Shown in pieces: positions 7,320 to 27,624 of a stretch of DNA of 64,000 nucleotides. The stretch is taken from assembly GCA_025463985.1 (NCBI GenBank), contig JAODBM010000114.1, positions 45,643 through 109,642 of the forward strand, in the 5' to 3' direction. The position numbers and the translations under genes are program-made. This DNA is from Acidimicrobiales bacterium. Lineage in GTDB: Bacteria > Actinomycetota > Acidimicrobiia > Acidimicrobiales > Iamiaceae. Each line of letters opens with the position of its first letter. Positions within the stretch are counted from its first letter, which is position 1. The notes beneath the pieces were generated by a model. The model searched no databases. It saw only the letters and a program-made list of their open reading frames with translations, and was not told the DNA's origin.

Positions 7320-7363
7320 CTGCGCTCGTAGCTCAATTGGAGAGAGCATCTGACTACGGATCA
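7320..7363 (+). repeat. Left attachment-site core / 5' half remnant of tRNA-Arg(ACG)
   Basis: 44/44 identity to 27313-27356; ends 3 nt into the 3' anticodon stem, then diverges (tcccgg vs gaaggt). Confidence 0.92.
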
Positions 7364-8233: not shown

Positions 8234-9139
8234 CTACTTCGGACTGCCGTAGGCGGCGTGGGCGAGCTTGATGAGGCGGCCAAGAAGCTCTGAGTGGTCG
8301 TCGAGGTCCTTGTCGTGGATCTGCAGACGGTAGGCGCCCCACCGGGCTTGGTAGGTCTGGAGAATGAGACCTGCCTCCTCCATCTCCTGGGTCATCTCGT
8401 CGTCCCGCGGAAGGCGCAGCTCGAGGACGACGTGCTGTCTGCGCGGACGCACCAGCATGAAGTTTGTGGCGACGCCATCGGCGGTGATCCCGATGTAGTT
8501 CTTGTTGTAGTTCGCTTGCGCCTTCGGTTGAGCTTGGCGAGCGAGAGCCACCAGCCGATCGGTGATAGCGAGCGTCGCAGGAGACCCCTTGCTCTCCCAG
8601 TACGACCGATCCCGTGGTTCGGTTCGATCCTCCTCCTCCTCTTCGACTGCAAGTCGGATCGTATCGAGGACCTTAGTTAGGACCACCGTGACTGCCCCGT
8701 TCACCTCCAGGGCCGAGGCTTGGATGGCGACCAGCGGGATGAAGCCGTTGAACAGACTGATCACGTTGAAAAACCGAGAGGTTATGTCCTCGGCGACGAT
8801 CACTCCGACGTGCTCGTACTGGGGGTAGCGGCGACGTTCGATGTCCCAGTACTCGATCGTCCGGATGATGTGGGACTCGTCTGTCGAGCCGAGCTGCAGC
8901 TCGACCTCGTATCGAGTGTTGGCATCCGGGTCTTGGAGCAGGAGATCGAGACGGCCGGCTCTGGGCTGAGAGCGCTCAACGTCCTTCACCTCTAGCTCAC
9001 CGAGGCCAAGGATCGACGGGTCGTTGACGATCAGCTGCTGGAGCCACTTCTCGTCGAACGTCGGATGGGCGCGCATCGAGAGGACGCGATGGGCGACGTA
9101 TCTCGGAGATTCCGTTCCGCCAGCGGTGATGTCAGTCAT
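8234..9139 (-). CDS. PD-(D/E)XK-like nuclease domain protein
   Basis: RAGRLDLLLQDPDANTRYEVELQLGSTDESHIIRTIEYWDIERRRYPQYEHVGVIVAEDITSRFFNVISLF; D-(x)n-ExE core typical of PD-(D/E)XK folds. Start chosen at MTDITAGG (9139). Confidence 0.6.
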   Translation of the reverse strand: MTDITAGGTESPRYVAHRVLSMRAHPTFDEKWLQQLIVNDPSILGLGELEVKDVERSQPRAGRLDLLLQDPDANTRYEVELQLGSTDESHIIRTIEYWDIERRRYPQYEHVGVIVAEDITSRFFNVISLFNGFIPLVAIQASALEVNGAVTVVLTKVLDTIRLAVEEEEEDRTEPRDRSYWESKGSPATLAITDRLVALARQAQPKAQANYNKNYIGITADGVATNFMLVRPRRQHVVLELRLPRDDEMTQEMEEAGLILQTYQARWGAYRLQIHDKDLDDHSELLGRLIKLAHAAYGSPK

Positions 9140-9468
9140 CGGCGGCAGGCTAGGTGATGCCCTGCGGCCTGGCGCTCGCCTGCATTCAGTTGAAGCGGGG
9201 GGTTCCTCGTCCGACGTCAGGGAGTCCGGATGGCGTAGCTGGCCTGCGCGAGCGATGCCGGGGGGTAATGGCAAGCGCCTCAACATGTCTGGCCTTGACC
9301 GCGTGCAACACGTCACTGCAGGCCCCCGGCGGGTCGTGGGTGGCCCCCAGGCTGTCAGACGCCCTGCGTAGCGTTGACGGCGTGAAATCCACGAGGCGCC
9401 CTGCTCGAGCCCGACCGGTAGTCGATCCTCCCCGACACCTTCGCCCGGGTCCTCTACCGTTGCAACAC

Positions 9469-11292
9469 ATGCTGCCCTCGCCGGACACTGACGAGTTCGA
9501 TGCTTCCGGAGATGGGCCGATGGGCAGCGACTCGCCGCTGTACGGGGAGCCCCTCCCCTCGGCGCGGACCGGTGCGCTCTACAACGCTTTCTCGTACCCG
9601 ACCAAGATCGACGCCGAATCGGTCGCTCTGTTCATCGCTTCGCACACGAGGCCAGGCGACACGGTCCTTGACCCGTTCGGCGGAAGCGGGGCCACCGGAA
9701 TCGCGGTGATGCTGTGTGACCGGCCGACGGAGGGTATGCGCCGTAGAGCCGCTGCTCTTGGGATGGAACCAGTTTGGGGTCCCCGTTCGGCTGTTTTGTA
9801 CGAGCTCAGCGTCATAGGATCACTCCTTGGACAGGTGATGACGAACCCCCCACCCCGGGAGCGCTTTCTGCAGGCGGCATCGCAGGTCCTACGGCGTGTC
9901 CACCGCAAGCTGGGTTGGTGCTACGAGACCGTCTCGCCGAGCGGTGAGGCGGGAGAAATCCGGCATGTCATCTGGTCTGAAGTGCTTCGCTGCCCCTCGT
10001 GCGGCGAGGACATGTTGTTCTTCGACCTTGCCGTCAGGCGCAACCCGGCCAAGATCCTGCCTGCGGGTTCCTGTTCGTCCTGCAATGCGGCCGTGGTGGT
10101 CGCGGAGGCCGAGCGCAGGCTGGAGACGACGGTTGATCCCGTTACCGGGGAGAGGGTGCTCGGGCGTGTACGGGTTCCAGTGTGGGTCTACGGCAGCGCA
10201 GCATCTGGAAACTGGAGTCGTCGGGCCACCGAGGAGGACGTGGCTGCACTCGCTCGAATCTCCGACCTGTCCCCTGAGGCTTGGGTGCCGTCGTCCTCGG
10301 TCGAGTGGGGTGATCTGTACAGGTCCGGCTACCACCAAGGGATCTCGAGGGTCCATCACTTCTATACCCGGCGAAATCTGCTCGTCATGTCAGAACTCTG
10401 GGCAGAGGTCGATCGCCATCCCAAGTTCCTCGGAGATGCGCTTCGACTGTGGGTCCTTAGCTACAACTCGTCGCACTCGACCCTGATGACCCGGGTTGTT
10501 GCGAAGTCTGGTCAGCCCGATCTCGTTCTCACCGGAGCGCAATCGGGAGTCCTGTACGTGAGCAGCCTCCCGGTCGAGAAGAACATCCTCAAGGGACTTC
10601 AGCGAAAGTCGGCCGTCTTCGCCGATGCATTCTCCCTCACCGAAGGGTCGCGCAGCGCGGTTCAGGTGCTCAACGCGTCCAGTACATCGATGCAGCTGGA
10701 GGACTGCTCGGTTGACTACGTGTTCACGGATCCCCCCTTCGGCGGTTTCATTCCGTACTCGGAGATCAACTTCTTGAATGAAGCCTGGCTGGGCCGCCTT
10801 ACCGACACGCAGGATGAGGCGATCGTCAGCCCAGCGCAGGGCAAGGGCATCGCGGACTATCAGCTTCTGCTCAAGACCGTCTTTCGTGAGGTAGCGAGAG
10901 TTACGACCGAGCGAGCTCCTATGACGGTCATCTTCCACAGCTCACAGCCGGCCGTCTGGGAGGCAATCGGGGAGGCGTTCAGCTCGAACGGGCTCGTGGT
11001 CCTCAGGACCAGCGTTCTCGACAAGCTGCAACCGAGCTTCAAGCAGGTCGTCTCTGACGGCGGTACCCGTGGGGATGCGATCTTCCTGCTCGAGCACTCG
11101 GGAGCGAGTCGCCGTGCGGGTGCCGTGTCGGCTGGTGAACCCGATCCCCGTCAGGTCTCGGGACCAGTGGCGGTCTCGGGTGACCCCAAGCGCCTCTACT
11201 CGCTGTACGTGGGCGACTGCCTGAAGCGCGGCCACCGGGTCGTCCTGAGTGCACCCGAGTTCTACGCGCAACTACCAGCCCGCGAACCATGA
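9469..11292 (+). CDS. DNA methyltransferase with zinc ribbon (DUF1156/DNA methylase-like, DPPF motif)
   Basis: ATG at 9469; SAM motif VLDPFGGSGATGIAV, catalytic VFTDPPFGGFIPYSEINFLNEAWLG, CPSCGED...CSSCNA zinc-ribbon pair. Confidence 0.75.
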   Translation: MLPSPDTDEFDASGDGPMGSDSPLYGEPLPSARTGALYNAFSYPTKIDAESVALFIASHTRPGDTVLDPFGGSGATGIAVMLCDRPTEGMRRRAAALGMEPVWGPRSAVLYELSVIGSLLGQVMTNPPPRERFLQAASQVLRRVHRKLGWCYETVSPSGEAGEIRHVIWSEVLRCPSCGEDMLFFDLAVRRNPAKILPAGSCSSCNAAVVVAEAERRLETTVDPVTGERVLGRVRVPVWVYGSAASGNWSRRATEEDVAALARISDLSPEAWVPSSSVEWGDLYRSGYHQGISRVHHFYTRRNLLVMSELWAEVDRHPKFLGDALRLWVLSYNSSHSTLMTRVVAKSGQPDLVLTGAQSGVLYVSSLPVEKNILKGLQRKSAVFADAFSLTEGSRSAVQVLNASSTSMQLEDCSVDYVFTDPPFGGFIPYSEINFLNEAWLGRLTDTQDEAIVSPAQGKGIADYQLLLKTVFREVARVTTERAPMTVIFHSSQPAVWEAIGEAFSSNGLVVLRTSVLDKLQPSFKQVVSDGGTRGDAIFLLEHSGASRRAGAVSAGEPDPRQVSGPVAVSGDPKRLYSLYVGDCLKRGHRVVLSAPEFYAQLPAREP

Positions 11293-13367
11293 GTGTGACA
11301 CTGAGTCCTGACCTTCAGGCAGAGGAACGAAAGCGCCTAGGTCAGTACTTCTCGGGGCGTCGGCTCGCGCTACTACTAGCGCATCTGGCCCGAGCGGGGG
11401 CGGCCAAGTCGGTCGTCGATCCGATGGCGGGCGTGGGCGACATGTTGGCGGCCTCCCTCGAGCTGGGCGGCGGCACGGAGCGTGTGTACGGCGTGGAGAT
11501 TGACCCTGGTGCGGTAGAGCAGTCACGACAGCAGTTGCGGACCGCTTCAGGGTCGATCCTCGTGTCGGAGGGCGATGCCTTCAGCAGAAGCTCGTGGCCC
11601 GACCTCAGGCAGTGGTCACTTGTCATCACGAACCCGCCGTACGTTCGCTATCAACGTGGGGCGGGTGGATCCTTGGCAGGCCTCACGCTGCCCAGCCCCT
11701 CGGACGTCAGATGTGGATTGCTGTCCCTGGTGGAAGCAAACGAGGAACTATCGGTTGAAGAGCGACGCGTGTTTGCGGCCCTAGCTGCGGGCTACGGAGG
11801 ACTTGCCGATCTGGCCGTCCCGTCCTGGCTGCTCAGCGCCTCTCTCGTTCGGGAGGGTGGGACTCTGGCGATGGTGGTGCCGGACACCTGGCTTAGCCGG
11901 GACTACGCGGCGTCGGTTCTCTATGCGCTTTGCCGGTTCTTCAAGGTTGAGTTGGTCGTGGAGGATGCAGATGCCGTGTGGTTTCCCGATGCGCTGGTGC
12001 GCACCACCCTGCTTGTTGCTCGCCGGGTTGCTGACAGGGGAACGGCGTTCGCTGCTTCTGGCACGGGTTACCTCCGCGCCCGGCTGAACTCGTCGACGGT
12101 GGGGCCAGGAAGTGTTGTTGAGAGGATCTTTCCCGATCGTCCGGATCCGGACCTCGCCTTCACTGAGCGTCTCTACGAACTGCTCGAGGCACGATCAGAG
12201 TTCCAGAGTGGGCAGTGGTCCGCTAAGTGGCACGACGACCGAACACTGAGCGATCTCCTGCGGCAACGACAGGGTCCGACCTGGGTCGGCGTGTGTGAAG
12301 GACCGGGTCCTCGCGTCGAGAGCGGTTCACCGGCTCGGGCTCGCATCTGCCTTCCAGGAGACCTCCGCACCGCGCTCGAGGTTCCAGACACAGAACTACA
12401 GGGGATCGATTCGTTTGGGTGGACGGCAGGTCAGGGTCTGCGTACTGGCGGCAACAGATTCTTTTACCTTGACTTAGTCGCAGCAGGCACGAGCGAATCG
12501 CGTCTCTCACCCGGTGGGCTGAAAGGGCTTCCCGAACTCTCGGTACCGAATGTTCTGCTTGCGCCTGTCGTGCAGCGTCAGAGGGACTGTGATGCGGGGT
12601 TCGTCCAAACTGCCGAGGTTCGATCTCGGGTCCTCCTGTTGCGTGGCTGGGCGCTCGCCGAGGACATTGCCTTCACGAGGGAGGCCGGCGTTGCATGCCA
12701 TGACCGGCCACTGCCCGAGGCGCTTGCCGAACATATCCGACGGAGTGCGCACCTAAATGTCGGGTCGGCCGAGGAGCCTCGAAGACTTCCAGAGCTTTCG
12801 GCAGTTCGAACGAACGTAAAAGCACCCGATTCGGCTAGGCCTGACCGATCCCCGAGCCATTGGTACCAACTGCCGGCACTTGCTCCGCGCCACACCCCGA
12901 ACCTCTTCCTTGCGAGGGTCAACCATCTCCACCCTCGGGCGCTTCGGAGTGCGACGCCCGGATTGATCGTCGACGCGAACTTCACCACCTTCTGGCCAAC
13001 CAGTGCAGGGGCCGTTTCGGAGCATGTCATTCTTGCCCTGATGAACAGTTCCTGGGTTCGAGCTCAGCTGGAGCTCTCGGCGACGGTGCTCGGAGGAGGG
13101 GCCTTGAAGGTCGAGGCAGCACATGTTCGACGGCTCGCGTTTCCATCGCCTTCGCCGTCCGCGCTCGAGTCATTGGAAACCTGCGGGCGCGCTCTGGGCG
13201 AGCCCCGTCAGTCTGAGGCGGCTCTCACGATGATCGATCGAACGCTGATCGAAGCCCTTCCCGGGCCAGGTGCGGACGAACGCCAGAATGTCTTAGCCAG
13301 ACTCTCTGCGGATCGGCTGATCACTAGGTCCTCGCGGCTCTCGCTCCGGCACGCCGGAGAGCGTTAG
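11289..13367 (+). CDS. N6-adenine-type DNA methyltransferase (NPPY)
   Basis: RKRLGQYFSGRRLALLLAHLA...VVDPMAGVGDMLAAS...VYGVEIDPGAVEQSR...LVITNPPYVRYQRG; 4 bp overlap with the preceding methylase. Confidence 0.85.
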   Translation: MSVTLSPDLQAEERKRLGQYFSGRRLALLLAHLARAGAAKSVVDPMAGVGDMLAASLELGGGTERVYGVEIDPGAVEQSRQQLRTASGSILVSEGDAFSRSSWPDLRQWSLVITNPPYVRYQRGAGGSLAGLTLPSPSDVRCGLLSLVEANEELSVEERRVFAALAAGYGGLADLAVPSWLLSASLVREGGTLAMVVPDTWLSRDYAASVLYALCRFFKVELVVEDADAVWFPDALVRTTLLVARRVADRGTAFAASGTGYLRARLNSSTVGPGSVVERIFPDRPDPDLAFTERLYELLEARSEFQSGQWSAKWHDDRTLSDLLRQRQGPTWVGVCEGPGPRVESGSPARARICLPGDLRTALEVPDTELQGIDSFGWTAGQGLRTGGNRFFYLDLVAAGTSESRLSPGGLKGLPELSVPNVLLAPVVQRQRDCDAGFVQTAEVRSRVLLLRGWALAEDIAFTREAGVACHDRPLPEALAEHIRRSAHLNVGSAEEPRRLPELSAVRTNVKAPDSARPDRSPSHWYQLPALAPRHTPNLFLARVNHLHPRALRSATPGLIVDANFTTFWPTSAGAVSEHVILALMNSSWVRAQLELSATVLGGGALKVEAAHVRRLAFPSPSPSALESLETCGRALGEPRQSEAALTMIDRTLIEALPGPGADERQNVLARLSADRLITRSSRLSLRHAGER

Positions 13368-14833
13368 CCCAAGCTGGCTGTGAGGCTTTCGCCGGCTGCC
13401 CTCTGGAAGTCGTCCCACGCCAAGTCGCTAGCGGTGTCGGATGGCTGTGGGTACGGCAGGGCGATCAATGTGAGGCGCATCTGCCCGTCTCGCTGTCGGA
13501 CCAGCTCGCGTACCACCCGGCCTTGTCCATTCGCGGGGTAAATCAGGGCACACCGGTCGACTGCGCTGCCGCCAAGATGCGCCAGATGACCGTACGCGAA
13601 GATCTGGTTGGAGTCTTCCGCCTGTGGGAGGTTCCGGGGTTCGTCCTTGTACTTGGCATCGAGGCACCAGACGGCATCAACGCCTCCGGTGGTGAGCCGG
13701 GCGAGATAGTCCGGGTAGCGATCGGAGGTCTCGGTTCCGTTGGCTGAGTGCCATGGGGCTGGGACCTCAACGTCGGGTCCTCCCGCTCGGTTGTCGGCGT
13801 TGATCCTGAGCGTGCTTACCCGAGGCGAGCGCAGCAGTGCATCGCCAACCAACTTCTCCCAAAGTTTGTCCGTCGGGATGGAGAGAACGAAGCCCGGAGT
13901 GTCATCAGGTGTGGGCGGTGCGGGGGTCCGTGGATCGTCGATGAGGATGGTTCGAGCGACTTGTAGGGGTGAGCGGAATGTTCGCTCATACCTTGAGAGC
14001 CGAATGGACCTCGACAGCCGGAATGCGATCCGGCGGTCGATGATCGGGACCGCCTCGAGCCCTCGGACAAGCCGCACGGCTCGGCTCTGAATCGGTCGGA
14101 AGAGCTCGTTCGTCTCCTGTGTTCCGGGATAGCGCGCAACCACGTGGAGCGCTGCGAGGAGCACCTTCGCCAGATCTGTCGCCGTCGAGTGCTCATCGAA
14201 TCGGCAAAGCACCCTGGGCTGTCGGGTGGCGAGAGTGACTGCAAACGAGGAATCGAGGATGCGGCCCTTTGGGGAAAGCAGCCACTCGTCCGTCTCGACG
14301 TAGTGCGCCCTTAGACGGTTGAGCAACGGCTCGACCTCTGAGACAAATCGCCTGTAGGCGATCAGTCTGAGGAGGATGTGGCGATCTCCGCCCGTTGGAA
14401 TTTGCTCGTCAACCAGGCTGAGTTGGCAACGATCGAATAGCTCGACCATGTCCAGGAGCGACCCCACACCGGGAGTCGGCCCACCGATCGTTTCGGCTCG
14501 GAAATCCCGCCCGATCGATTGCTCGACCTCCAGGAGCTCGGGGTCGGAGTGAGATGCCGTCGCCAGCCAACTGCGCAACGCGTCGAGTAGCGACGTGGGC
14601 GCGTCAACCGCGATGACGTCACCTTCGTAGGCCACGAGACTCAACGGCTGGTTGCTCTCCCATTGAGTCCGGATCAGCCGGGCCTCTCCATCTCGCCATA
14701 CCTTCGGGAGGACGGTCAGGCTCATGCTTCCACCTTTGCTGGCGAAGGCGAGGAAGCCAACTCGCTTGCGCTTGGGAGAAGCCCGCAGGAGCAGCTCAGC
14801 CATCGCCAGGTGCCGCCACGGCATCACCAACAT
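13364..14833 (-). CDS. McrC-like PD-(D/E)XK restriction subunit
   Basis: YERTFRSPLQVARTILI...FVLSIPTDKLWEKLVGDALLR...GGPDVEVP...GGVDAVWCLDAKYKDEP...DSNQIFAYGHLAHLGG; McrC architecture. Start uncertain (ATGs at 14833, 14803, 14725). Confidence 0.75.
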   Translation of the reverse strand: MLVMPWRHLAMAELLLRASPKRKRVGFLAFASKGGSMSLTVLPKVWRDGEARLIRTQWESNQPLSLVAYEGDVIAVDAPTSLLDALRSWLATASHSDPELLEVEQSIGRDFRAETIGGPTPGVGSLLDMVELFDRCQLSLVDEQIPTGGDRHILLRLIAYRRFVSEVEPLLNRLRAHYVETDEWLLSPKGRILDSSFAVTLATRQPRVLCRFDEHSTATDLAKVLLAALHVVARYPGTQETNELFRPIQSRAVRLVRGLEAVPIIDRRIAFRLSRSIRLSRYERTFRSPLQVARTILIDDPRTPAPPTPDDTPGFVLSIPTDKLWEKLVGDALLRSPRVSTLRINADNRAGGPDVEVPAPWHSANGTETSDRYPDYLARLTTGGVDAVWCLDAKYKDEPRNLPQAEDSNQIFAYGHLAHLGGSAVDRCALIYPANGQGRVVRELVRQRDGQMRLTLIALPYPQPSDTASDLAWDDFQRAAGESLTASLG

Positions 14834-16517
14834 CTGGTGGTGTATGACCTGGATCTTGAGGATCTGGCGCTGCGTCCTGAACGTCGGCTTCGGCCGGGTC
14901 TAGTGGTGCCTGCGCTGGGTCCGGCGTAGCAGATGCAATGTCCGGGGGAGCCTGGTCCAGAATCACGAGGGTTCGACCCAGGTCGTGGCCGACCACGCGT
15001 AGCCAGATAGACATCTCAGCCAAGAAGTGGTCGAACTGGGTCAGTGCTGGGCCGTTCGCTGGCGAACCGTGCGTTGCCTGCCAGCTCGCCCTCTGGGTCG
15101 TATCGAGCAGATCCTCGATTCCGTTTGAAACCGCAAGCTCCACGAGCTGGGGGAGTATTGCGTAGCGCCAGGTCAACCTAGGTTCGCTCGCATTCGAGGC
15201 CCGCAACTTTGGCATGTCGAATAGACCAAAGTCGCGTCCGCTTGCATTGGCAACAGACCGGTCGTGCCAGGCGCTTAGTGCCTTCAGGACGGCGATCCGG
15301 GCATCGCTCCGATCAATGCGTTGCAGGACTAGATCTCCATTCTCTGCCACTGACCAGATGAGGATGCGGTGCTCGAAATGCTTCGCCTCGGGATGGTCCG
15401 CCACCCCGTCGATCTGGTTGGCGACTGCGCTGAGGTTCTCTCCATCCGCCGTCGTGCCCTGCAGGCGGATCCGCCATACGGGCGAGGCGTTGTAAAGGAT
15501 CTGGTTGTCGGTGTAACGGTCGCCCTCATATCTGACTACGAACGAATCGACGCGCTGGCGGTCAGGGTCTGGCTCGCCAATCGGCGCGTCCGGCGGTCCG
15601 AGTGGGTAGAACAACTCCAGGCTGCCCCCCATGCCACTCACACCGTGCTCAGCGAGGTCGAACTGATTCCGACTGCCACCATTTCCGGAACGGACCTCAG
15701 TCCAGAACGCGCGCTCCGCACCAGCCTGGGCCGCACCGAGTGCCAGCGCGAGACCAGGGTCATTCGTCGAAGCGATGTCGAAGAGATAGCTGTGACCGAG
15801 TTCGCCGTCCGGTCCGAGCGCAGGTCGGAGGACGTCCTTGTTGACTGAAGTGAGCATCGCAATCGATTCCGCGGCCAGGGCGGCTACCTGCGGACCGCGC
15901 GCCTGAGCGAGGCGTTCGCTGAGCATGGCACCGCCGAGCGGTGGAACCCGGACAAACGCGAAACGTCGACGGAGGGCAGCGTCCAGCGGGGCGATCGACT
16001 GGTCCGACGTGTTCATTGTCCCGAGGACATAGATATTGTCAGGGACCGAGAATTGCCGAGCCGAGTAGGGCAAGGTAACGATCGAGCCGCTCGTCCAAGT
16101 GCCGGCTGCTGCATCCCACCGAGTTCTCTTCGATTTCTCGAGCGTCAGTAGAAGGTCGCCCAGGACCTTTGGCACGTTGGACCGATTCACCTCATCCAGA
16201 AGTAGGAGGAAATCGGCACCGGGGTTGGCTTCTGCGATGACTACGGCTCGGGTCATGAAGCCGTTGCGCAAGGCGAAGGCTCCTGTGTGCTCGTTGTAGC
16301 GCAGGCCCTCCACGAAGTCCTCATACGAGGTACTTGGGTGCATTGTGATCGCGTATTCTCCCTGGCCCGCTCCGAGGAGCGGCCGACCCGTGAATGCGCT
16401 CCACCGCTCGGCAATCTCATCCACGACGAACGTCTTTCCCGTGCCGGGGGCCCCCTCAAGGATCACGTTGTGAAAACGTTGAAGTGCTGCGATCGCCTCG
16501 TCTGCGAGAGACACCAC
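14796..16517 (-). CDS. McrB-like AAA+ ATPase/GTPase
   Basis: Walker A EGAPGTGKT; ITMHPSTSYEDFVEGLRYN; Walker B LLLLDEVNRSNVPKVLGDLLLTLE; NIYVLGTMNTSDQSIAPLDAALRRRFAFV (McrB-type signature). Confidence 0.85.
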   Translation of the reverse strand: MVSLADEAIAALQRFHNVILEGAPGTGKTFVVDEIAERWSAFTGRPLLGAGQGEYAITMHPSTSYEDFVEGLRYNEHTGAFALRNGFMTRAVVIAEANPGADFLLLLDEVNRSNVPKVLGDLLLTLEKSKRTRWDAAAGTWTSGSIVTLPYSARQFSVPDNIYVLGTMNTSDQSIAPLDAALRRRFAFVRVPPLGGAMLSERLAQARGPQVAALAAESIAMLTSVNKDVLRPALGPDGELGHSYLFDIASTNDPGLALALGAAQAGAERAFWTEVRSGNGGSRNQFDLAEHGVSGMGGSLELFYPLGPPDAPIGEPDPDRQRVDSFVVRYEGDRYTDNQILYNASPVWRIRLQGTTADGENLSAVANQIDGVADHPEAKHFEHRILIWSVAENGDLVLQRIDRSDARIAVLKALSAWHDRSVANASGRDFGLFDMPKLRASNASEPRLTWRYAILPQLVELAVSNGIEDLLDTTQRASWQATHGSPANGPALTQFDHFLAEMSIWLRVVGHDLGRTLVILDQAPPDIASATPDPAQAPLDPAEADVQDAAPDPQDPGHTPPDVGDAVAAPGDG

Positions 16518-17196
16518 CGTGCTGTAACCCCCCTGATCTGACAGCGGTGCGCTGCCTGATCTTGCAACTGGCTGAGGCCGGTCATCCTTGCAGGTCCGCT
16601 GGTCGAGGTGTCTTCGAAGGACGCCACCACATCGCCCTCGGTTGTGCTGGCGCCTCGGGTCGGGGCCATGCAGGCGAGGCGCGAGAGATCAGGGGCGTAG
16701 GTCGGGTGGGGTGAAGGTCCCAGGAACTGCGTCGAACGCTCCATCGAGGTTGGTAGTTGGGTGTGCGATTACCTGGCTGAACGCAGCTCGCATGGTCAAC
16801 AGACGTGGGCTTCACCCAGGACCTCCCAGAGACACTCAGAGATGCTCGTCTGTCCCTCGCCTAGCGGCGACTCGATCGGAACTAGCGGCTTGCCGACGCT
16901 GTGACCAGAGCCTGTCCCCACCGATCCCGGCGGCAAGACCCGGCTGGGCTCGAGCTCTGCCTCGATCGCAGCAGCGGCTTCCTCCCACTGCCCGCAGACC
17001 GCCGACCGCCGGATGATGGGCTCTCGACCAGCTAACGGAGGACGAGATGACCACGATCGTGTCCGACCGAACGCGGACGTGCGTGTCACGCAAAAGCGAG
17101 GGCGGTCCCTGCACGGCTAGCGTTTCGCCGGCGGCAAGTCAGGTTTCAACTGTTCCGAACACATGCGAACGCACGAGGTGCGTCAGAGAGGGATTT

Positions 17197-18456
17197 ATGA
17201 GGCTCACCGGCCTGACTGTGGAGAACTGGAAGTCCTTCCGAGAGCCATCCCACTTGGAGCTCAGGCCACTGACCATTCTTCTGGGCCGCAACAATGCCGG
17301 CAAGAGTGCTCTGACGAGGCTTCCCCTTCTTCTTGCCGCTGGGTTCGGCGGACAAGTTGGACCGCCACTTCCCTTTGATCTCTCACAAGCCGACGTCGGG
17401 CGGATCCTTCCCGATGTAATCTATAAACGCCTCGCTCACGGAAGTGTCACCCTCGCAGCGGATTTGCAGACCCAGGCGAGTGATTCTCTCAGGGTGACCT
17501 TCCGGGTCCAGAATATTGATGAACTAAAGCTGCAGCTGCTGACAGAATGGTCGGTCAGCAAGAACGGCGACAAGGTCGCAGAGCTATTGTGGATTGGTAG
17601 CGATCCTCGTGCCTCGATCCAACCATATCGAGACAGCGTTAGTGACGTCGATATCCTTCTTGCCTTTGATGGGTTGGTACCCCGGCCCGATCAAGACAGC
17701 GAACTCACTGAAGTATTCACCAGCGTCTTGTCCGACCTTTCTGAGAAGCTGTTTGTCACTTACCTCGGACCGTTTAGAGAACAACCGAAGCGGAGCTATG
17801 AGTATCCGGGAACCGATCCAGACCACGTAGGTACGCACGGAGCGGGAGTCGCTGGGATCCTTGGCTCCGATGCACTCCGACGACAGGGTCGCCTTGTTGG
17901 CCAGGTCGCAGACGGCATGGAGGATCTGATTGGCCCATGGCGTCTTGCTGTCGAGCCATCGGGAGATGCTTTCAGGTTGGAACTCGTGTCGACTTCAGAC
18001 GCCGCGCTGCGGATAAACCTGGTTGATGTCGGGACCGGGGTGTCTCAGGTCATGCCGATCGTGGTGCAACGTGTCATGGATCGCAACCAGGAGGATCATG
18101 ATTTCCTTGAGGTCGTCGAACAGCCAGAGCTACACCTTCACCCTCGGGCGCACCTGCCGCTTGCTGATCTCTACATAACGGGGGCTCAGCGCACGGGTGC
18201 ACAGTTCGTTGTGGAAACCCACTCAGAAAACTTCGTGCTTCGAGTTAGGCGCCGCATTGCCGAGGGGTTGTTCGATCCAGATCTACTAGCGCTCTACTAC
18301 ATCGAGCACGACGGACAGGAAGCGACTGTTCGAAGGATCGAAATAGGCCCACTCGGGGATGTGGACTATTGGCCCTCGGGTGTCTTCTCCGAAGACTATG
18401 AGGAGACACGCCACTTGGCGGAGGCGCAGTTGGCCCGGGATCCAGATGCTGGTTGA
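17197..18456 (+). CDS. ABC/SMC-type ATPase, DUF3696/OLD-like
   Basis: ATG at 17197: MRLTGLTVENWKSF...ILLGRNNAGKSAL; YLGPFREQPKRSYEYPG; DVGTGVSQVMPIVV; VEQPELHLHPRAHLPLADLYI; FVVETHSENFVLRVRRRIAEG; WPSGVFSEDYEE. Confidence 0.82.
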   Translation: MRLTGLTVENWKSFREPSHLELRPLTILLGRNNAGKSALTRLPLLLAAGFGGQVGPPLPFDLSQADVGRILPDVIYKRLAHGSVTLAADLQTQASDSLRVTFRVQNIDELKLQLLTEWSVSKNGDKVAELLWIGSDPRASIQPYRDSVSDVDILLAFDGLVPRPDQDSELTEVFTSVLSDLSEKLFVTYLGPFREQPKRSYEYPGTDPDHVGTHGAGVAGILGSDALRRQGRLVGQVADGMEDLIGPWRLAVEPSGDAFRLELVSTSDAALRINLVDVGTGVSQVMPIVVQRVMDRNQEDHDFLEVVEQPELHLHPRAHLPLADLYITGAQRTGAQFVVETHSENFVLRVRRRIAEGLFDPDLLALYYIEHDGQEATVRRIEIGPLGDVDYWPSGVFSEDYEETRHLAEAQLARDPDAG

Positions 18457-19390
18457 GGTTTCTGCGGATCTCCTAGGTGACCCGGATGGCCATGGATGCT
18501 GTGACGCGATGCTGCTGATGTGGACTCGGCGGAAGCACGAATGGGCACTGTCATCTCCGGCCGGGCTCGATCAACTCCTGAGCAGCAGCTGGTACGAGTC
18601 TGGCCTCACGGCCGACCGTAAAAAAACGGTTCGGGCGCTCGCGGAGCATGGGTTTCAGGCCCAGGCCGCTTACGGAGGTCCCCAGACCACCATAGGCTTA
18701 GTCGGTGGAGACGATGGCGCCCGCCAGATTGAGAGTCTGTTCCACCCAGCGGTTCTTGTCGTGGAAAACGCCGAATCCGACTCCACCTTCGTTCGGTCAA
18801 TCCTGCAGGCATACGACGAGCGAGCGCTCCTTGAGGCGATCGACAAGTCGTGGATTGTGTTTCGCCACAGTGGCGGGTCTGGCGGGGTTGTCGATCGAAT
18901 GTTGGCCGAGCTGCGAGTCGTCGGATACGCGGAGCGCCTTGCAGCGCTTCTCGACTCGGATAGTCGCTGGCCCGGTGAGGTGACGGTCAATCATAAGAAG
19001 GCACAACAGTTGGCGGACGAGGGTATGCGAGTGCACGTCCTCGCCAAGCGCGAGGTCGAGAACTACATTCCCAACCGAGCACTGGCGGTTCGGGTGAGTT
19101 GCCGGGATCTGATTCGGTGGCTCAAATTGCTCAGTCATGAGCAGCGTTCTTACTACGATATGAAGAAGGGATTTCCTGCCGCGGCCCCAGTCGATGAGGC
19201 CTACGTCTCGCTATGGGAGGATCTCGACGCAGGAGCTAGGACGCACCTCGAAGAAGGCCTCGGTGATAGCGTCCTCGGAGTGCTCCCGATTGCCATAGCC
19301 TCACTACGGCCCGCCGACTTCGATGGTCCCGACCTTAACGCCAGCGCGGAACTTCTCACCCTAATTGAGTTGTTGAAGAGCATGGTCTGA
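18446..19390 (+). CDS. TOPRIM/DUF4435-like protein, putative nuclease partner of the upstream ATPase
   Basis: ATG at 18446 overlaps ATPase stop by 11 bp; VLVVENAESDSTFVRSIL (candidate catalytic E), RHSGGSGGVVDRM, LLDSDSRW (DxD), VHVLAKREVENYIPN reminiscent of OLD/AriB-like TOPRIM proteins. Confidence 0.5.
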   Translation: MLVEVSADLLGDPDGHGCCDAMLLMWTRRKHEWALSSPAGLDQLLSSSWYESGLTADRKKTVRALAEHGFQAQAAYGGPQTTIGLVGGDDGARQIESLFHPAVLVVENAESDSTFVRSILQAYDERALLEAIDKSWIVFRHSGGSGGVVDRMLAELRVVGYAERLAALLDSDSRWPGEVTVNHKKAQQLADEGMRVHVLAKREVENYIPNRALAVRVSCRDLIRWLKLLSHEQRSYYDMKKGFPAAAPVDEAYVSLWEDLDAGARTHLEEGLGDSVLGVLPIAIASLRPADFDGPDLNASAELLTLIELLKSMV

Positions 19391-19395
19391 AATCT

Positions 19396-21042
19396 ATGTC
19401 TTCACCATTCGTAAAGCCAGATATTGCTCTGCTTCAAGACCTCATCGCCGAGGTTCAAGCCGGCGATCTGCGGGTGCCCCGGTTTCAGCGTCCATTTGTC
19501 TGGAGCCCTGCGAAGATGCTCGCTCTTTTCGACTCGATCGATAAGGGGTATCCGGTAGGAAGTCTGCTTCTGTGGGAGACACCCGCTCCTATTCAAAGCA
19601 TCGGAATGGTCGGGTGCGTACCGGTGGCGCCGAGTCCTTCGTCGTCCAAGACCTCCTACGTACTGGACGGGCATCAGCGTCTGTCGACTTTGTTCAGCTG
19701 TCTGTCGCCCGAAAGCTCATTGGACTCCGGGACGCGCGAATGGTGGTGGGAGATTTACTGCGACTTGAGCGTGCCAGAGGGGGATCGGACGAATCGGTTC
19801 CGTCATTGGCGTAGCGCCGTTCCGCCGCCAGCGTCGTACATGTCGCTTCGTCACGTGCTCAGGACCATGGACTTCCTTGGGTTCGCCCGCAGGTTAGAAG
19901 CACAGTCGGTGAAGCGCAGCGACGTCGATGCCTTCGTCGCCACAGCGGAGGTCATCGCCCAACGGATCAAGTCATACCGATTTGCGGTAGTTCGCATCGT
20001 CGGGGGAACCCTCTCCGAGGCGGTCGAGATCTTCTCGCGCTTGAACAGCAGCGGGCAGTCGATGACGGCTGACCAGATGGTGTCGGCGCTCACCTTCTCA
20101 ATGGACGGCCCTTCGCTGGCAGATGGGATCGACCAGGTTCTGGAGGACGTGGCCCGCATTGGCTTCGGCCAGTTGCCTCGCCCGCCGGTGTTCCGCGCAG
20201 CGCTCGCTGTCAGTGGGGAGAGGGACATCCAGGACGCACGGTGGGAAACCATCGCCCAGAGGCTCGGGGGACGAATAGGGGAGGTGGTCGAATCCACTTC
20301 AGATGCAGTTGCTCAAGCGGTCGAGTTTCTGCAGACCGAGGTTGGTGTTCCGCTGGCGCGTCTCATTCCCTACGGCCTTCAAACCACCTTGCTCGCCGCC
20401 TATTTTCACCATGCCGCCCCGGAGCAGTCCGATGAAAACTTGAGCGTGCTCCGGACGTGGTTTTGGGCTACCTCGTGGTCGGGTTGGTTCGCAGGCGCAA
20501 ACACCACCCAGGTGAAAGAGGACCTCGAGGCGATGGTGGCTTTCGCGTCCGGCAGCGGAACACCGACAGGTCTGGCGGCTGCACCACAAGGTTTCCCGGA
20601 GAGCTTCGACCTCCGATCTGCTCGAGTCCGCACGCTCCTGATCTGGTTCCTGCGAGATCGGGTGCTACTCGACCCGAGTGGTAACGAGTTCGATGCTCGG
20701 GGGTACATCGCCGCTCTCGACACCGACGCGTTCAGACAGGTGATCCGGGACCCGAGAGCTGCGCGGTCGCATCCCGCTAATCGGGTGGTGCTCCCTACGG
20801 ATCGGGGGGTTTCAGTTCGCGCAGCTCTCATCGCTCTCGCACCCGAGAACGTCGAAGCCGTTTGCGAGTCACACCTGATCCCATTGGAAGCTCTCGACCG
20901 GCTTCGTCAGGGCAACAACGAGGATTTCGTACGGCTGCGTACCGACCGTCTGGCCGCGTCGGAGCGCTCGTTCATGACAGAGGTTGGCGTGGTCGCTGAA
21001 TCGACGTTGTCCACGGCGGAAGACCTGTTCGACTCGGACTGA
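19396..21042 (+). CDS. DUF262 domain protein (GmrS/SspE-like ParB-fold NTPase domain)
   Basis: LIAEVQAGDLRVPRFQRPFVWSPAKMLALFDSIDKGYPVGSLLLWETP...YVLDGHQRLSTLF; C-terminal SHPANRVV...SHLIPLEAL...DFVRLRTDRLAASE. Starts 6 bp after the previous stop. Confidence 0.85.
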   Translation: MSSPFVKPDIALLQDLIAEVQAGDLRVPRFQRPFVWSPAKMLALFDSIDKGYPVGSLLLWETPAPIQSIGMVGCVPVAPSPSSSKTSYVLDGHQRLSTLFSCLSPESSLDSGTREWWWEIYCDLSVPEGDRTNRFRHWRSAVPPPASYMSLRHVLRTMDFLGFARRLEAQSVKRSDVDAFVATAEVIAQRIKSYRFAVVRIVGGTLSEAVEIFSRLNSSGQSMTADQMVSALTFSMDGPSLADGIDQVLEDVARIGFGQLPRPPVFRAALAVSGERDIQDARWETIAQRLGGRIGEVVESTSDAVAQAVEFLQTEVGVPLARLIPYGLQTTLLAAYFHHAAPEQSDENLSVLRTWFWATSWSGWFAGANTTQVKEDLEAMVAFASGSGTPTGLAAAPQGFPESFDLRSARVRTLLIWFLRDRVLLDPSGNEFDARGYIAALDTDAFRQVIRDPRAARSHPANRVVLPTDRGVSVRAALIALAPENVEAVCESHLIPLEALDRLRQGNNEDFVRLRTDRLAASERSFMTEVGVVAESTLSTAEDLFDSD

Positions 21043-21098: not shown

Positions 21099-21776
21099 CT
21101 AGGTCGGCGGAACTCGTGATGTCCAGACGTTTCGTACTGTGGCCGGGTACCACTCCCGGCCCCCGTGCGCAGTGGGTACGGACTCGGCGTTCAGGCGACG
21201 GGCGATCGAGGACCAGCCGTTGCCCGCATCGTGCTCGGCAAGGATTCGGTTGGCGGTCTCGTCTGGCAACTGCCGAGGTCGGCCGAGCTTCACGCCCTGT
21301 GCGCGTTTTATCACGAGAGCGTCGCGAGTTCGCTGGCCGATGATGCGTCGCTCCCACTGGGCGGCAGATGCCATGACGCTTGCCATGAACTCGCCAGCGG
21401 GCGTGCTCAGGTCGATCCCAAGATCGAGGGCGACGAGATTCCAGCCGTTTGCCTGTGCATCCGACATGAGGCTGGCGAAGTCGAGCAACGATCGTGAGAG
21501 CCGGTCGAGCTTCGACACCATCAGGGTTCCGGCTCGTCCCGAGCGAACCTCCGCGAGCCCGTCTGCCAGGCCGTCCCGATTGCGAAGAGACTTGCCGGAT
21601 GCGCCTGCGTCAACGTGTACGCCCACGAGCGTCCACCCTCGGCGCTGGCACTCCGCCTCGATGGCTGCGCGCTGGGAATCGAGGCCGAGCCCGCTGTCGG
21701 CTTGCTCGGCCGTGGACACCCGTAGGTAGGCGACGACGGTGTCTGGACCCGCGCTCTGTGGTCGTTTGCGAGGCAT
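21099..21776 (-). CDS. Serine recombinase (resolvase/invertase family)
   Basis: VVAYLRVSTAEQADSGLGLDSQRAAIEAECQRRGW...LMVSKLDRLSRSLLDFA...TPAGEFMASVMASAAQWERRIIGQRTRDAL...GVKLGRPRQLPDE. Confidence 0.92.
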   Translation of the reverse strand: MPRKRPQSAGPDTVVAYLRVSTAEQADSGLGLDSQRAAIEAECQRRGWTLVGVHVDAGASGKSLRNRDGLADGLAEVRSGRAGTLMVSKLDRLSRSLLDFASLMSDAQANGWNLVALDLGIDLSTPAGEFMASVMASAAQWERRIIGQRTRDALVIKRAQGVKLGRPRQLPDETANRILAEHDAGNGWSSIARRLNAESVPTAHGGREWYPATVRNVWTSRVPPT

Positions 21777-23130: not shown

Positions 23131-25503
23131 CTAGAAAACCGCCTCGATCACCTCGTCTGGCTCGCCTTGATTGGCTCGCTCGGATGCGGTCGCTACGGCA
23201 ATAACGGCAGTTTTCGGCTGATCGTCCCCCGGGTGAGGATCCGAATCCTGATGCTCGTTCTCACGCATGGGAGGAGAGGGGCTGAATTGCCGTAACCGCC
23301 GTTCGTCGCCCGGTGGAACGGTTGTTTCCGGCGAGGAGGGCGCTGCATCCGCATCGTTCGGACGGGGGCCTGCCGCTGGGACGGCAGTTACGGCAGTGTC
23401 CGGCGAGGAGATCGTGCCGACGGCGGTGTGGCCAGTCGGGTCCCCCGGACCCGGTGCAGCGGTGACTTCCGCTTTTGGGCCAGATGCGCTGGCAGGCAAG
23501 GAGGCCGTACTGGCTTCCGGTGGCCCCCACTCGTCGTCGGGCCGCAGTGTGATTCCTCGGATCACAACGGTACCGGCGCCGTTCTTTCCCACCCCCAGAC
23601 CCGCCGAGCGGACCACCTCGTAGAACTTGTGCTTACCGAGCAGGTTGCGGCGGTTGTCTGCGCACCACCTCTCGAATGCGCGCCACAGCTCGGTGCGGGG
23701 CACACCGCCGTGTGGGACGGGCTGTGTGGCTTCAGCGAGGAACAGCCGCACACGATCCGAAGCCTGAGCGAACTCGTCAGCGGCGCGACGAGTAGCGGGA
23801 GTCTCGAGGTATGCCCCGCGTGCCGCATGCGCGTGGTAGGCGCCCTGGAGCCGTACGAGGATGCCGGACAGCTCCTTCACCAACTGGTCCTCGATGGTCG
23901 GGTCCTCGTGACTGGCGAAGCTGTTCGGGAAGGGGAAAGGACGTATGCGGTTGAGGTACGCGGTCGTCACCTCGGACGCGGTGGGGATGGAGTTGGCGCT
24001 GAACACGAACAGGCATCGGGCATGGAAGATGAATGGCTGGCCATACTTGCGCTGGGCGCGCACCAGATCGTCACCGGTCAGGGCCTTGAAGGTCGACAGG
24101 TCCTCGAGATGAGCGGCCGAGAGGTCGGCTGCGCTGTTGAGGATGGAACCGGCAAGGTCTGCGGCAGCGAAGGTGTCTCGCGCGAGCTGGCCGAGAGTGA
24201 CCGCGGAGCGGTGAGGCCCTACAAGGTGTTCAAGAATGCGTAGGAACGTCGACTTACCCGACCGACTCGGACCATGGAGGAACAGCGCCCGCCTCTGTTG
24301 GCGGTTCGGCCGCGTCTCCAGCAGTTGAGAAGCTGACTCCAGGAGATCCTCGACGAGGCCATCGCCAACGACGGTGGGGAGCCAGCCGTCGAACGTCGGG
24401 CAGGTGGCGGACGGATCCCACGCCACCGGGAGCTGCACGAGCGAGAGGTGGGCGGGGTCGTGGTCGTGGAGCAGGCCGGTGAGTGGATCGAGCATGCCAT
24501 TGGCGACGTTTACGAGCCCTGGGTGGGGGTCGTCGCTCGCCACCCGACCCTCGGCCCGAAGCCGGCCCTGCGCGTACTCAGTCAGCGTCCGCGCGTGCTG
24601 GGGCCGATAGGCGTCGCCGAGTAGTCCGGTGAGGATTGCGCCCCAGTCGGCGGCATCGGTTCGGTCTGCCCGGTAGACGCCATCGGAGTAGGTGGCGACA
24701 CGGCCGGAGCGGTCGAGGCAGAGGTGATGCTCGGCCCGAATCGCGGCCAGGGCGGCGTCGGCCCGGATGCCGCCGTCGGTATCGAGCAGGGGCGACTTGT
24801 GTCGGATCGCCTTAGGTCGCCGGCCGAGCTTTTCGGCCATGTCGACCAGCCGGGCCAAGACGTTGGCGCGGTCGACCTGCTCGGCATTGGCGAGGTAGTC
24901 GTCAAGGCCGATCTTGGGCCCGGCGGGCAGCGCGACGAACTTGACGGTCTTTGCACCCAGCACCTCGAGGTGGGTGCCAAGGCGAGCGCCCGCATCATGG
25001 ACGTCGGGGTTGGTTGCCACATCGGCGTCGAGGGCGATGACGACGGGCAAGCCGGCGATACCGAGCCGTCCGAGCTCGGGGTTTGCGAGCTTGTCGCGAG
25101 ACCAACCCCAGCAGCCGGCCATGCCGATCACGAGCACGTCCGATGGCGCGTAAGCGATGGCGGCAAGGGTCTGGCGGGTGCCCTCTACAATCAGCACCCA
25201 GCTGGCAGAGCCGATGCGGGCGCGCATGTCGGGAACGATGTTCAGTGGCGCCGGCCCGGCAGGGAAGACGTATTTTCGAAGTCGGCCCTTGGCGTCGGGC
25301 GTCGGGGAGTCGGGGCGGTACTGCGGCACGGGCGGACCGTCGAGCGGGCAGAGCTGGAACACGATTCCCGGTCCATCCCAACGGAATCCAGTAGGGAGCT
25401 CACAGGATGACATCACGCTGTAAGCGCCGGCACTTTCTGCCACGTTCTTTGGGATGGCAGTAGCGGCGAGGAAGTGGGCATGGTCCGAACTGAGACCATG
25501 CAT
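23131..25503 (-). CDS. Phage/plasmid primase-helicase, P4/D5 family
   Basis: VNVANGMLDPLTGLLHDHDPAHLSLVQLPVAWDPSATCPTFDGWL...ALFLHGPSRSGKSTFLRILEHLVG...ADLSAAHLEDLSTFKALTGDDLVRAQRKYGQPFIFHARCLFVFSANSIP; N-terminal TOPRIM-like/DUF3854-like part. Confidence 0.88.
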   Translation of the reverse strand: MHGLSSDHAHFLAATAIPKNVAESAGAYSVMSSCELPTGFRWDGPGIVFQLCPLDGPPVPQYRPDSPTPDAKGRLRKYVFPAGPAPLNIVPDMRARIGSASWVLIVEGTRQTLAAIAYAPSDVLVIGMAGCWGWSRDKLANPELGRLGIAGLPVVIALDADVATNPDVHDAGARLGTHLEVLGAKTVKFVALPAGPKIGLDDYLANAEQVDRANVLARLVDMAEKLGRRPKAIRHKSPLLDTDGGIRADAALAAIRAEHHLCLDRSGRVATYSDGVYRADRTDAADWGAILTGLLGDAYRPQHARTLTEYAQGRLRAEGRVASDDPHPGLVNVANGMLDPLTGLLHDHDPAHLSLVQLPVAWDPSATCPTFDGWLPTVVGDGLVEDLLESASQLLETRPNRQQRRALFLHGPSRSGKSTFLRILEHLVGPHRSAVTLGQLARDTFAAADLAGSILNSAADLSAAHLEDLSTFKALTGDDLVRAQRKYGQPFIFHARCLFVFSANSIPTASEVTTAYLNRIRPFPFPNSFASHEDPTIEDQLVKELSGILVRLQGAYHAHAARGAYLETPATRRAADEFAQASDRVRLFLAEATQPVPHGGVPRTELWRAFERWCADNRRNLLGKHKFYEVVRSAGLGVGKNGAGTVVIRGITLRPDDEWGPPEASTASLPASASGPKAEVTAAPGPGDPTGHTAVGTISSPDTAVTAVPAAGPRPNDADAAPSSPETTVPPGDERRLRQFSPSPPMRENEHQDSDPHPGDDQPKTAVIAVATASERANQGEPDEVIEAVF

Positions 25504-26288: not shown

Positions 26289-27230
26289 CTATAACCGGTC
26301 GCCGGGCGATAGGCGCCGGTGAGCCTCGCGTGCCCGTTGTGCGGCGGCTGACGATGCGTAGCGGGCCAGCATGTCCCGGCTGGTCCACCCGGCGACCTGC
26401 ATCAGGTCGCCCTCGTTGCCGCCCTCGGCGAGCCAGGTGTGGGCCATCGTGTGACGGAACCGGTGCGGGTGTACGTCGGCCACCTTCGCCTCGAGGCCTC
26501 GGCGTCGCATCATCTGGGAGATGCCCGACGGGGTCATGGCCCCTCGGTTGCCGATCCAGAGCGACGGCGAGTCGGCATGGATGTGGTTCGCCCGACGCCG
26601 GATGTAGCGGTCGAGCTCCTTGACGGCCTTCGATCCGATCCTCAGGTGGCCCATGCGCCGTCCCTTGCGGGTCACGGTGATGAGGTTGACGTCGAGATCG
26701 AGGTCGGACAGCTCGGGGGCGTCAGGGTGGTGCCTCAGGCCGGCGATCTCCGACACCCGAGCGCCGGTGTCGATGAACAACCGGAACAGCGCCCTGTCTC
26801 TCAGGTCATCGAACGACTTGCCGGCACAGGTTCCGAGCAGGCGCCGCATCTCGTCCTCGCTGAAGATCGGGACCGGCTGCTCGGGAACCTTGGGTGGGCG
26901 CATCTTCGCCATTGGCGAGGCGACGATCTCTCCCTCGTCGACCAGCCACCGGAAGAGCTGCTGCAACGAGCGAAACCGGTTGGCGGCGGTTGAGGCGGAG
27001 TGCTTGGTCAGCAGCTGCTCGAGGAAGCTCTCGATGTGCTCCCTGGCGATGCCGGTAGGAGAAGTGGGCATCCCGGCGGCGTTGAGGAAGGCGGCCAGCT
27101 GGGTCCCGGCCTCAACGTAGGACTGGATGGTCCTTGGGCTGAGGTTCGCCGCCCGGAGGTGGCGCTGCCAACTGGGGAGCAGTGATTCCACGTCCGGTAA
27201 GGTGCGGGGCGTCGACGTCCTCTCGGCCAT
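26289..27230 (-). CDS. Tyrosine recombinase/integrase
   Basis: [20 protein letters not shown]...[19 protein letters not shown]...[55 protein letters not shown]...HxxR...Y catalytic pattern; 84 bp from tRNA-Arg. Confidence 0.95.
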
Positions 27231-27314
27231 ACCAAATCATACGCTGTAGAAGCGGTGTGCTGGGAGGGTCGACATGACCAAGGGAGAGAAAACCCTGGTC
27301 AGAGCAGTGAATCT

Positions 27315-27388
27315 GCGCTCGTAGCTCAATTGGAGAGAGCATCTGACTACGGATCAGAAGGTTGGGGGTTCGAGTCCCTCCGAGCGCG
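27315..27388 (+). tRNA. tRNA-Arg(ACG), reconstituted by the integrated element
   Basis: gcgctcg ta gctc aattggaga gagc a tctga ctacgga tcaga aggtt ggggg ttcgagt ccctc cgagcgc g; full cloverleaf, anticodon ACG. Confidence 0.95.
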
Positions 27389-27624
27389 CTGAGTTCTTCC
27401 GGCGAATGCGCTGGTCATGGAGGTGCGCCATGGCCGCACCACTTTCTGGCAGGCAGTCAAGGATGTGGGGGAAGCACTGACCCGCCTGGGGCACGTGAGA
27501 GCGCGCTGACATGCAGCTCTGCACCCAGAACCTTCTGATGACTGAATCAGACGATTGGACTCGCCAACAGGGACGCTCGCGAGTCGGCTTCGCGTCGCGG
27601 GAACGGCGCGTCGAGCGCGTTCGG

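What the first reader, a model, noticed from the sequence alone, without database searches (positions are those of the whole stretch)
17197..21042. Three-gene operon: DUF3696/OLD-like ATPase + TOPRIM/DUF4435-like protein + DUF262 protein (candidate new defence system)
Seen: three same-strand ORFs, the first two overlapping by 11 bp and the third starting 6 bp later, preceded by a ~680 bp non-coding stretch. Established: ABC-ATPase plus TOPRIM pairs form OLD-family systems such as PARIS (AriA/AriB) and Gabija (GajA single-chain with a UvrD helicase), and DUF262 proteins occur in GmrSD and SspE where they sense modified DNA. Inference: the fusion of an OLD-like sensor/nuclease pair with a DUF262 gene as one transcription unit is not a layout I recognise, and may be a system that reads both an infection trigger and DNA modification state.
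Basis: partly seen in the sequence, partly recalled or inferred. Interest (0 to 1): 0.85.

Follow-up and report, generated by a model that had tools for sequence, protein, structure and literature searches.

The report
Three-gene ATPase–nuclease–DUF262 phage-defence cassette
Three bacterial genes that are almost always inherited together encode an ATPase, a nucleic-acid-cutting enzyme and a sensor-like protein that has lost its own cutting site; they very probably form an anti-virus module that a software catalogue already lists as an untested candidate, here carried on a 20-kb mobile element.

Summary
In detail: three same-strand genes (A 17197-18456, B 18446-19390, C 19396-21042) encode a DUF3696/OLD-type ABC ATPase, a TOPRIM nuclease and a DUF262 protein, active-site motifs intact. 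The trio is a real module: 66 further full-length A-B-C sets, always in that order, in about nine phyla; in a sample of 395 Actinomycetes, strong B and strong A matches fall in the same 8 genomes, adjacent, with C downstream. It is not unlisted: each protein is a full-length match to PADLOC's candidate system PDC-M55, for which I found no published description. It resembles PARIS (ATPase + TOPRIM) and Menshen (DUF262 + DUF3696 ATPase), but Menshen's NsnC is unrelated to B. New here: B is shown to be an OLD-type TOPRIM (no Pfam family hits it); C is BrxU/GmrSD-like but lacks the HNH motif that stand-alone relatives keep (0 of 67 have it); motif loss goes with having a partner gene (TOPRIM pair here, putAbiC in a sister group); some trios sit beside or inside Pgl/BREX, DISARM-type or McrBC loci. 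In this window it lies on a 20-kb element flanked by 44-bp tRNA-Arg repeats. Likely mechanism: C senses DNA state or infection, A gates, B cuts. Function untested.

The parts
17197..18456 (+). Gene A: OLD/DUF3696-type ABC ATPase (PDC-M55A), 419 aa; Walker A GRNNAGKS (K36), E308 and H342 intact
   Evidence: PADLOC PDC-M55A 6.8e-131 full length; Pfam AAA_15 1.2e-17, DUF3696 6e-5; K36 100%, E308 99%, H342 99% over 67 loci
18446..19390 (+). Gene B: OLD-type TOPRIM nuclease (PDC-M55B), 314 aa; E107..D112, G143-G144, D170-S-D172, R202..E205-N-Y intact
   Evidence: PADLOC PDC-M55B 1.1e-63 full length; invariant residues; AF2 pLDDT 93.8; hhalign to OLD TOPRIM 97.7%, 1.8e-12 and to DUF4435
19396..21042 (+). 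Gene C: DUF262 (GmrSD_N, ParB/Srx-like NTPase) protein (PDC-M55C), 548 aa; DGHQR 91-95 intact; C-terminal HNH-derived region without the HHIFP motif
   Evidence: PADLOC PDC-M55C 7.5e-205; PDB BrxU 7p9k by sequence 5.5e-20 and fold E 1.1e-10; motif absent in 67/67
16518..17196 (.). Intergenic region upstream of the trio; probable regulatory region between the divergent McrB gene and A
   Evidence: no supported gene, no Rfam match, no sigma-70-like site
7320..7363 (+). Left copy of the 44-bp direct repeat (attL-like): 5' half of tRNA-Arg
   Evidence: exact 44-bp repeat of 27313-27356
27313..27356 (+). Right copy of the 44-bp repeat inside intact tRNA-Arg(ACG) 27315-27389 (attR-like)
26289..27230 (-). 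Tyrosine recombinase (integrase) of the 20-kb element that carries the trio
   Evidence: Pfam Phage_integrase 2.5e-20; lies next to the tRNA-Arg
13364..16517 (-). McrC-like (13364-14833) and McrB-like (14796-16517) genes, defence neighbours on the same element
   Evidence: Pfam McrBC 8.1e-13, AAA_5 2.7e-15; NCBIfam McrB 1.4e-27, below its cut-off
9154..13367 (+). Two DNA methyltransferase genes (9154-11292 PglXI-like; 11289-13367 N6-MTase), defence neighbours on the same element
   Evidence: PADLOC PglXI 8.6e-114, MTase_II 1.1e-21; Pfam N6_N4_Mtase, N6_Mtase

Best explanation
The trio is one transcription unit and one functional module, an instance of the uncharacterised PADLOC candidate PDC-M55. 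A and B together are a split OLD nuclease: an ABC ATPase gate (A) and its TOPRIM nuclease effector (B), as in PARIS. C is a GmrSD/BrxU-type DUF262 NTPase that has lost its own HNH active-site motif; it most likely acts as the sensor of foreign or wrongly modified DNA, or of a failed modification barrier, and passes the signal by nucleotide hydrolysis to A. A then releases or activates B, which cuts nucleic acid (DNA or tRNA) and stops phage replication, probably at the cost of the cell. Shown here: gene composition, co-inheritance, B's TOPRIM identity by profile, conserved catalytic motifs in A, B and the NTPase half of C, loss of the HNH motif in C, mobile-element and defence-locus settings. 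Inferred: co-transcription, defence function, direction of signalling, what C senses and what B cuts.
For: Full-length matches to all three PDC-M55 models (B in 63/63 homologues). 67 conserved A-B-C sets and co-occurrence in the 395-genome sample. Correlated divergence of the three proteins, Mantel r 0.86-0.89 against a permutation maximum of 0.19 (shared taxonomy contributes). B aligns with OLD TOPRIM domains over the E..D, GG, DSD and ENY motifs, and the B profile hits the C-terminal part of OLD ATPase-TOPRIM fusions whose N-terminal part is hit by the A profile, so A+B correspond to a split OLD protein. A also matches AriA of PARIS, 2.8e-20. C is BrxU-like over its length but lacks HHIFP in 67/67, while solitary relatives keep it. 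Defence setting: McrBC and methyltransferases in the window; PglW and PglX flank the trio in seven Micromonosporaceae loci and lie nearby in two more; BrxH in two loci, DrmA in two. TOPRIM-linked OLD ATPases inside BREX loci are reported independently and read as backup effectors (PMC12839542).
Against: No phage-challenge or biochemical data. Foldseek found no significant PDB or viral match for the B model (best relevant: PARIS entry 8ux9_A, E 0.096, TM 0.24), so TOPRIM identity rests on profile and motif evidence plus the order of strands and helices. The sensor role of C is by analogy with SspE/BrxU. Most of the loci I inspected have no recognised Pgl/BREX neighbour, so a strict dependence on such systems is unlikely. 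No structure of the A-B-C complex could be predicted.
Confidence: 0.6

Rival explanations
1. Modification-directed restriction (type IV-like): C is the targeting subunit that binds modified or unmodified phage DNA, and B is the nuclease that cuts that DNA in place of C's lost HNH domain; A is a loading or coupling ATPase. No cell suicide is needed.
For: C is homologous to BrxU/GmrSD modification-dependent enzymes; loss of the HNH motif is matched by presence of a nuclease partner; neighbours in the window are modification genes.
Against: A is closest to NsnB and AriA-type ATPases rather than to translocases; the sister group of C pairs with putAbiC, named a putative abortive infection protein, rather than with a DNase.
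Confidence: 0.25
2. The trio is a subtype of Menshen: a DUF262 + DUF3696-ATPase core with an exchanged third protein.
For: A matches NsnB (PADLOC 2.7e-43; hhalign 99.9%, 1.4e-33) and C's N-terminal half matches NsnA (hhalign 97.5%, 7e-12). A review says one Menshen component carries an OLD-type TOPRIM domain (PMC10952713).
Against: B and NsnC are unrelated (hhalign 1.3%), NsnC matches no TOPRIM profile, gene order differs (DUF262 first in Menshen, last here), and C is usually longer, with an HNH-derived region. The 2025 paper on Menshen domain polymorphism (gkaf357) is not held and could not be read.
Confidence: 0.25
3. PARIS-like backup: A senses a phage anti-restriction protein that disables the neighbouring BREX or restriction system and unleashes B; C only regulates.
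For: A-B composition as in AriA-AriB; position inside Pgl loci; backup role proposed for OLD-TOPRIM pairs in BREX loci (PMC12839542).
Against: Many trios have no such recognised neighbour in the inspected flanks; C is the best conserved of the three against the nearest relatives (51% against 42% for A and 27% for B in L010), which argues for a central role.
Confidence: 0.2
4. Not a defence module: a mobile-element maintenance or DNA-repair module.
For: Lies on an integrative element in this window and on plasmids elsewhere.
Against: Domain make-up and repeated defence-gene neighbourhoods; inclusion in PADLOC as a defence candidate.
Confidence: 0.08

Closest known systems
PDC-M55 (PADLOC-DB 2.0.0 phage defence candidate, genes A, B, C)
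   Same: All three proteins match the three models over full length; all 63 homologous B proteins match PDC-M55B.
   Different: Nothing in composition. It is a catalogue label; no paper in the held library mentions PDC-M55.
PARIS (AriA/AriB)
   Same: OLD-type ABC ATPase plus separate TOPRIM protein; A matches AriA at 2.8e-20.
   Different: Has no DUF262 gene; A carries DUF3696; no AriB model among the hits of B.
Menshen (NsnABC)
   Same: DUF3696 ATPase (A ~ NsnB) and DUF262 protein (C ~ NsnA).
   Different: Third protein NsnC unrelated to B; DUF262 gene first rather than last and usually shorter.
GmrSD / BrxU / SspE (DUF262 proteins)
   Same: C aligns with BrxU by sequence (5.5e-20) and by fold (1.1e-10), and keeps the DGxQR NTPase motif.
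   Different: The HNH motif in the C-terminal half is absent in 67/67; C is encoded with A and B.
Gabija GajA and other single-chain OLD nucleases
   Same: A and B match the ATPase and TOPRIM parts of single-chain OLD proteins; A has weak GajA matches.
   Different: Split in two genes, no UvrD helicase (GajB) gene, DUF262 gene added.

Membership tests
PDC-M55 | Adjacent genes matching PDC-M55A, B and C | tested here: met
   6.8e-131, 1.1e-63, 7.5e-205, each over essentially the whole profile
OLD-family TOPRIM nuclease (for B) | TOPRIM motifs E, G-G, DxD in order, followed by the OLD/DUF4435-type ENY motif | tested here: met
   E107, G143-G144, D170xD172, E205-N-Y conserved 96-100%; hhalign to OLD TOPRIM 97.7% with all motifs aligned
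OLD-family TOPRIM nuclease (for B) | TOPRIM fold by structure comparison | tested here: inconclusive
   Confident model (pLDDT 93.8) with alternating strands and helices carrying the motifs, but no significant Foldseek match
PARIS | AriA-type ATPase | tested here: met
   AriA profile 2.8e-20, ranking behind PDC-M55A, NsnB and HEC-03B
PARIS | AriB-type TOPRIM partner and no other core gene | tested here: not met
   No AriB model among the families hit by the 63 B proteins; third gene C present in the conserved unit
Menshen | NsnC protein | tested here: not met
   B vs NsnC hhalign 1.3%; NsnC vs TOPRIM profiles 0.1-0.2%; caveat: only four NsnC sequences, and the 2025 polymorphism paper could not be read
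Menshen | NsnB-type DUF3696 ATPase and NsnA-type DUF262 protein | tested here: met
   hhalign 99.9% and 97.5%
GmrSD/BrxU type IV restriction enzymes | DUF262 NTPase domain with DGxQR | tested here: met
   GmrSD_N 2e-23; motif 100%
GmrSD/BrxU type IV restriction enzymes | Active HNH (DUF1524-type) nuclease domain | tested here: not met
   HHIFP motif absent in 67/67; only one His column above 40% in the C-terminal part, at 76%
Anti-phage defence system | Protection against phage | not testable with these tools
   needs experiment

The most novel reading that the evidence does not exclude
DUF262 proteins of this clade are exchangeable sensors. One form carries its own HNH nuclease and stands alone; where the HNH motif is lost, a trans-encoded effector takes over: either an OLD ATPase + TOPRIM pair (this trio) or a putAbiC gene (sister group). 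In Pgl/BREX-2 loci the trio is wired into the modification system as a second, suicidal layer that checks DNA state.
Probability: 0.35. Interest if true: 0.7.

Novelty: new variant of a known kind. Interest (0 to 1): 0.5.

Why it matters
If the reading is right, the trio joins two large defence families, OLD ATPase-TOPRIM effectors and DUF262 modification sensors, in one unit. It gives a concrete, testable route by which DUF262 sensors swap their own nuclease for partners in trans, and it offers a compact three-gene module, found in about nine phyla and on conjugative plasmids, in which the direction of signalling between sensor, gate and nuclease could be worked out.

Tried and rejected
Foldseek of the B model against PDB and viral structures gave no significant match; profile comparison decided the TOPRIM question instead. 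Pfam and PDB sequence searches with B were negative. Menshen membership was tested with fetched NsnABC loci and rejected for B. A search of plasmids with A first led to a different DUF3696 system, ATPase + small protein + RNA-ligase-like gene. Searching for AriAB fusions returned generic P-loop matches only. No viral contig carried a relative of C. The paper on Menshen domain polymorphism was not held. Two candidate recurrent neighbours proved ordinary: a flavoprotein (L025) and a histidine kinase (L067).
Full report
Observation. A has AAA_15 and DUF3696 domains, C has the GmrSD_N (DUF262) domain, and B has no Pfam family.

Already catalogued. Scanning PADLOC-DB gave full-length matches to the three models of the candidate system PDC-M55: A 6.8e-131, B 1.1e-63, C 7.5e-205. 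No paper in the held library uses that name. So the gene set itself is not new, but I found no published description of it.

Co-occurrence. A scan of one genome per species with the C profile gave 337 relatives; among the best 80, the plasmid hits and the window, 67 loci carry full-length A, B and C in the same order and strand. Record titles name members of Actinomycetota, Myxococcota, Pseudomonadota, Desulfobacterota, Acidobacteriota, Binatota, Gemmatimonadota, Bacteroidota and Schekmanbacteria (assignment of genera to phyla is my own knowledge). Plasmid examples are Paracoccus yeei pYEE5 and two Leclercia IncFII plasmids, one of the latter with an IS1 inside B. That scan started from C, so I also sampled 395 Actinomycetes with B and with A: strong B in 8 genomes, strong A in the same 8, adjacent, with C downstream in all, one with a deletion spanning B and C. 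Weaker A matches in two more genomes have no B. Distances among the three proteins correlate (Mantel r 0.86-0.89, permutation maximum 0.19); shared species history contributes to this.

What B is. The 63-sequence alignment has invariant or nearly invariant E107, D112, G143-G144, D170-x-D172, R202, E205-N-Y and P209. AlphaFold2 gave a confident model, pLDDT 93.8, in which E107, the GG pair and the DxD follow successive strands. Foldseek found no significant match. Profile comparison settled it: B against OLD-family TOPRIM domains 97.7%, E 1.8e-12, score 88.7 against 24.9 for the best of 40 column shuffles; B against DUF4435, score 37.2 against 16.7 for the best shuffle. The B profile also hits the C-terminal part of single-chain OLD proteins whose N-terminal part the A profile hits. 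A and B therefore look like a split OLD nuclease.

What C is. C matches BrxU, a GmrSD-family enzyme, by sequence (5.5e-20) and by predicted fold (E 1.1e-10, probability 1.00, TM only 0.37). In the DGxQR motif D, G, Q and R are invariant. In the C-terminal half, stand-alone relatives keep a YHHIFP motif of the HNH nuclease type, and all 67 trio members lack it. Among the 15 inspected relatives without A and B, seven keep the motif and none of these has an overlapping or abutting partner gene; eight lack it, and seven of those have one. All six of the upstream partners tested are putAbiC proteins; the seventh partner lies downstream and is annotated as a HipA-family toxin. The pattern is small in number and not corrected for ancestry, but it suggests that the effector function moves to a partner gene.

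Relation to Menshen. Menshen loci were fetched through the NsnC model. A is homologous to NsnB and the N-terminal half of C to NsnA, but B is not related to NsnC, which shows no TOPRIM signal. A review states that one Menshen component has an OLD TOPRIM domain (PMC10952713), and the 2025 paper on Menshen polymorphism could not be read; this leaves some chance that specialists would file the trio as a Menshen variant.

Setting. In the window the trio lies on an element of about 20 kb bounded by a 44-bp exact repeat (7320-7363 and 27313-27356), the right copy inside an intact tRNA-Arg, with a tyrosine recombinase next to it, a D5/DUF3854 primase-like gene, a serine resolvase, McrBC-like genes and two methyltransferase genes. 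The element has 59-67% G+C, lower than most of the flanking DNA at 70-76%. Elsewhere, seven Micromonosporaceae trios lie between PglW and PglX, with PglX starting 19-35 bp after C in all seven and PglW directly upstream of A in four; two more loci have PglW and PglX nearby. Two loci adjoin BrxH and two DrmA. PglY (BrxC) is found beyond PglX in four of the Pgl loci. A recent survey describes TOPRIM-linked OLD ATPases in BREX loci as backup effectors (PMC12839542), so the association is partly known, though the parts I read do not describe this trio.

Mechanism. The best reading is sensor (C), gate (A), nuclease (B). PARIS provides the precedent for A and B: AriA detects Ocr and activates AriB, which cuts tRNA (PMC12839542). 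SspE and BrxU provide the precedent for C: NTP binding or hydrolysis coupled to recognition of modified DNA (PMC10952713). What C senses, what B cuts and whether the cell dies are all unknown.

Verdict. A real, conserved, probably defensive module, already listed as an untested candidate; a new variant of known kinds, with two findings worth following up: the trans-effector exchange in DUF262 proteins and the placement of the trio inside Pgl loci.

Noticed in passing
window 7320-27356: About 20-kb integrative element with 44-bp exact direct repeats made of the 5' half of tRNA-Arg(ACG), integrase 26289-27230, primase-like gene 23131-25503, resolvase 21099-21776; lower G+C than most of the flanking DNA.
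   Followed up: partly
window 8234-16517: Cluster of a DUF5655/NucS-like gene (8234-9316 -), two DNA methyltransferases (9154-13367 +) and convergent McrC/McrB-like genes (13364-16517 -); possibly a modification-linked McrBC system. Conservation was not tested beyond the flanks of the trio loci, where no relatives were found.
   Followed up: partly
L006, L075, L076, L077, L080, L088: DUF262 relatives without the HHIFP motif are preceded by an overlapping or closely spaced putAbiC (PF16872) gene: a separate two-gene candidate system, also on a Klebsiella plasmid.
   Followed up: partly
L031, L032, L036, L038, L041, L042, L073 (also L037, L039): PDC-M55 trio lying between PglW and PglX of Pgl/BREX type 2 loci in Micromonosporaceae; in L037 and L039 PglW and PglX lie nearby.
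   Followed up: partly
L090, L091, L092, L093: Another DUF3696 ATPase system: ATPase followed by a small protein and an RNA-ligase-like (or HNH) gene, on plasmids.
   Followed up: no
L009 5917-7635: In one Leclercia plasmid gene B is interrupted by an IS1 element, while a related plasmid (L005) has it intact.
   Followed up: no
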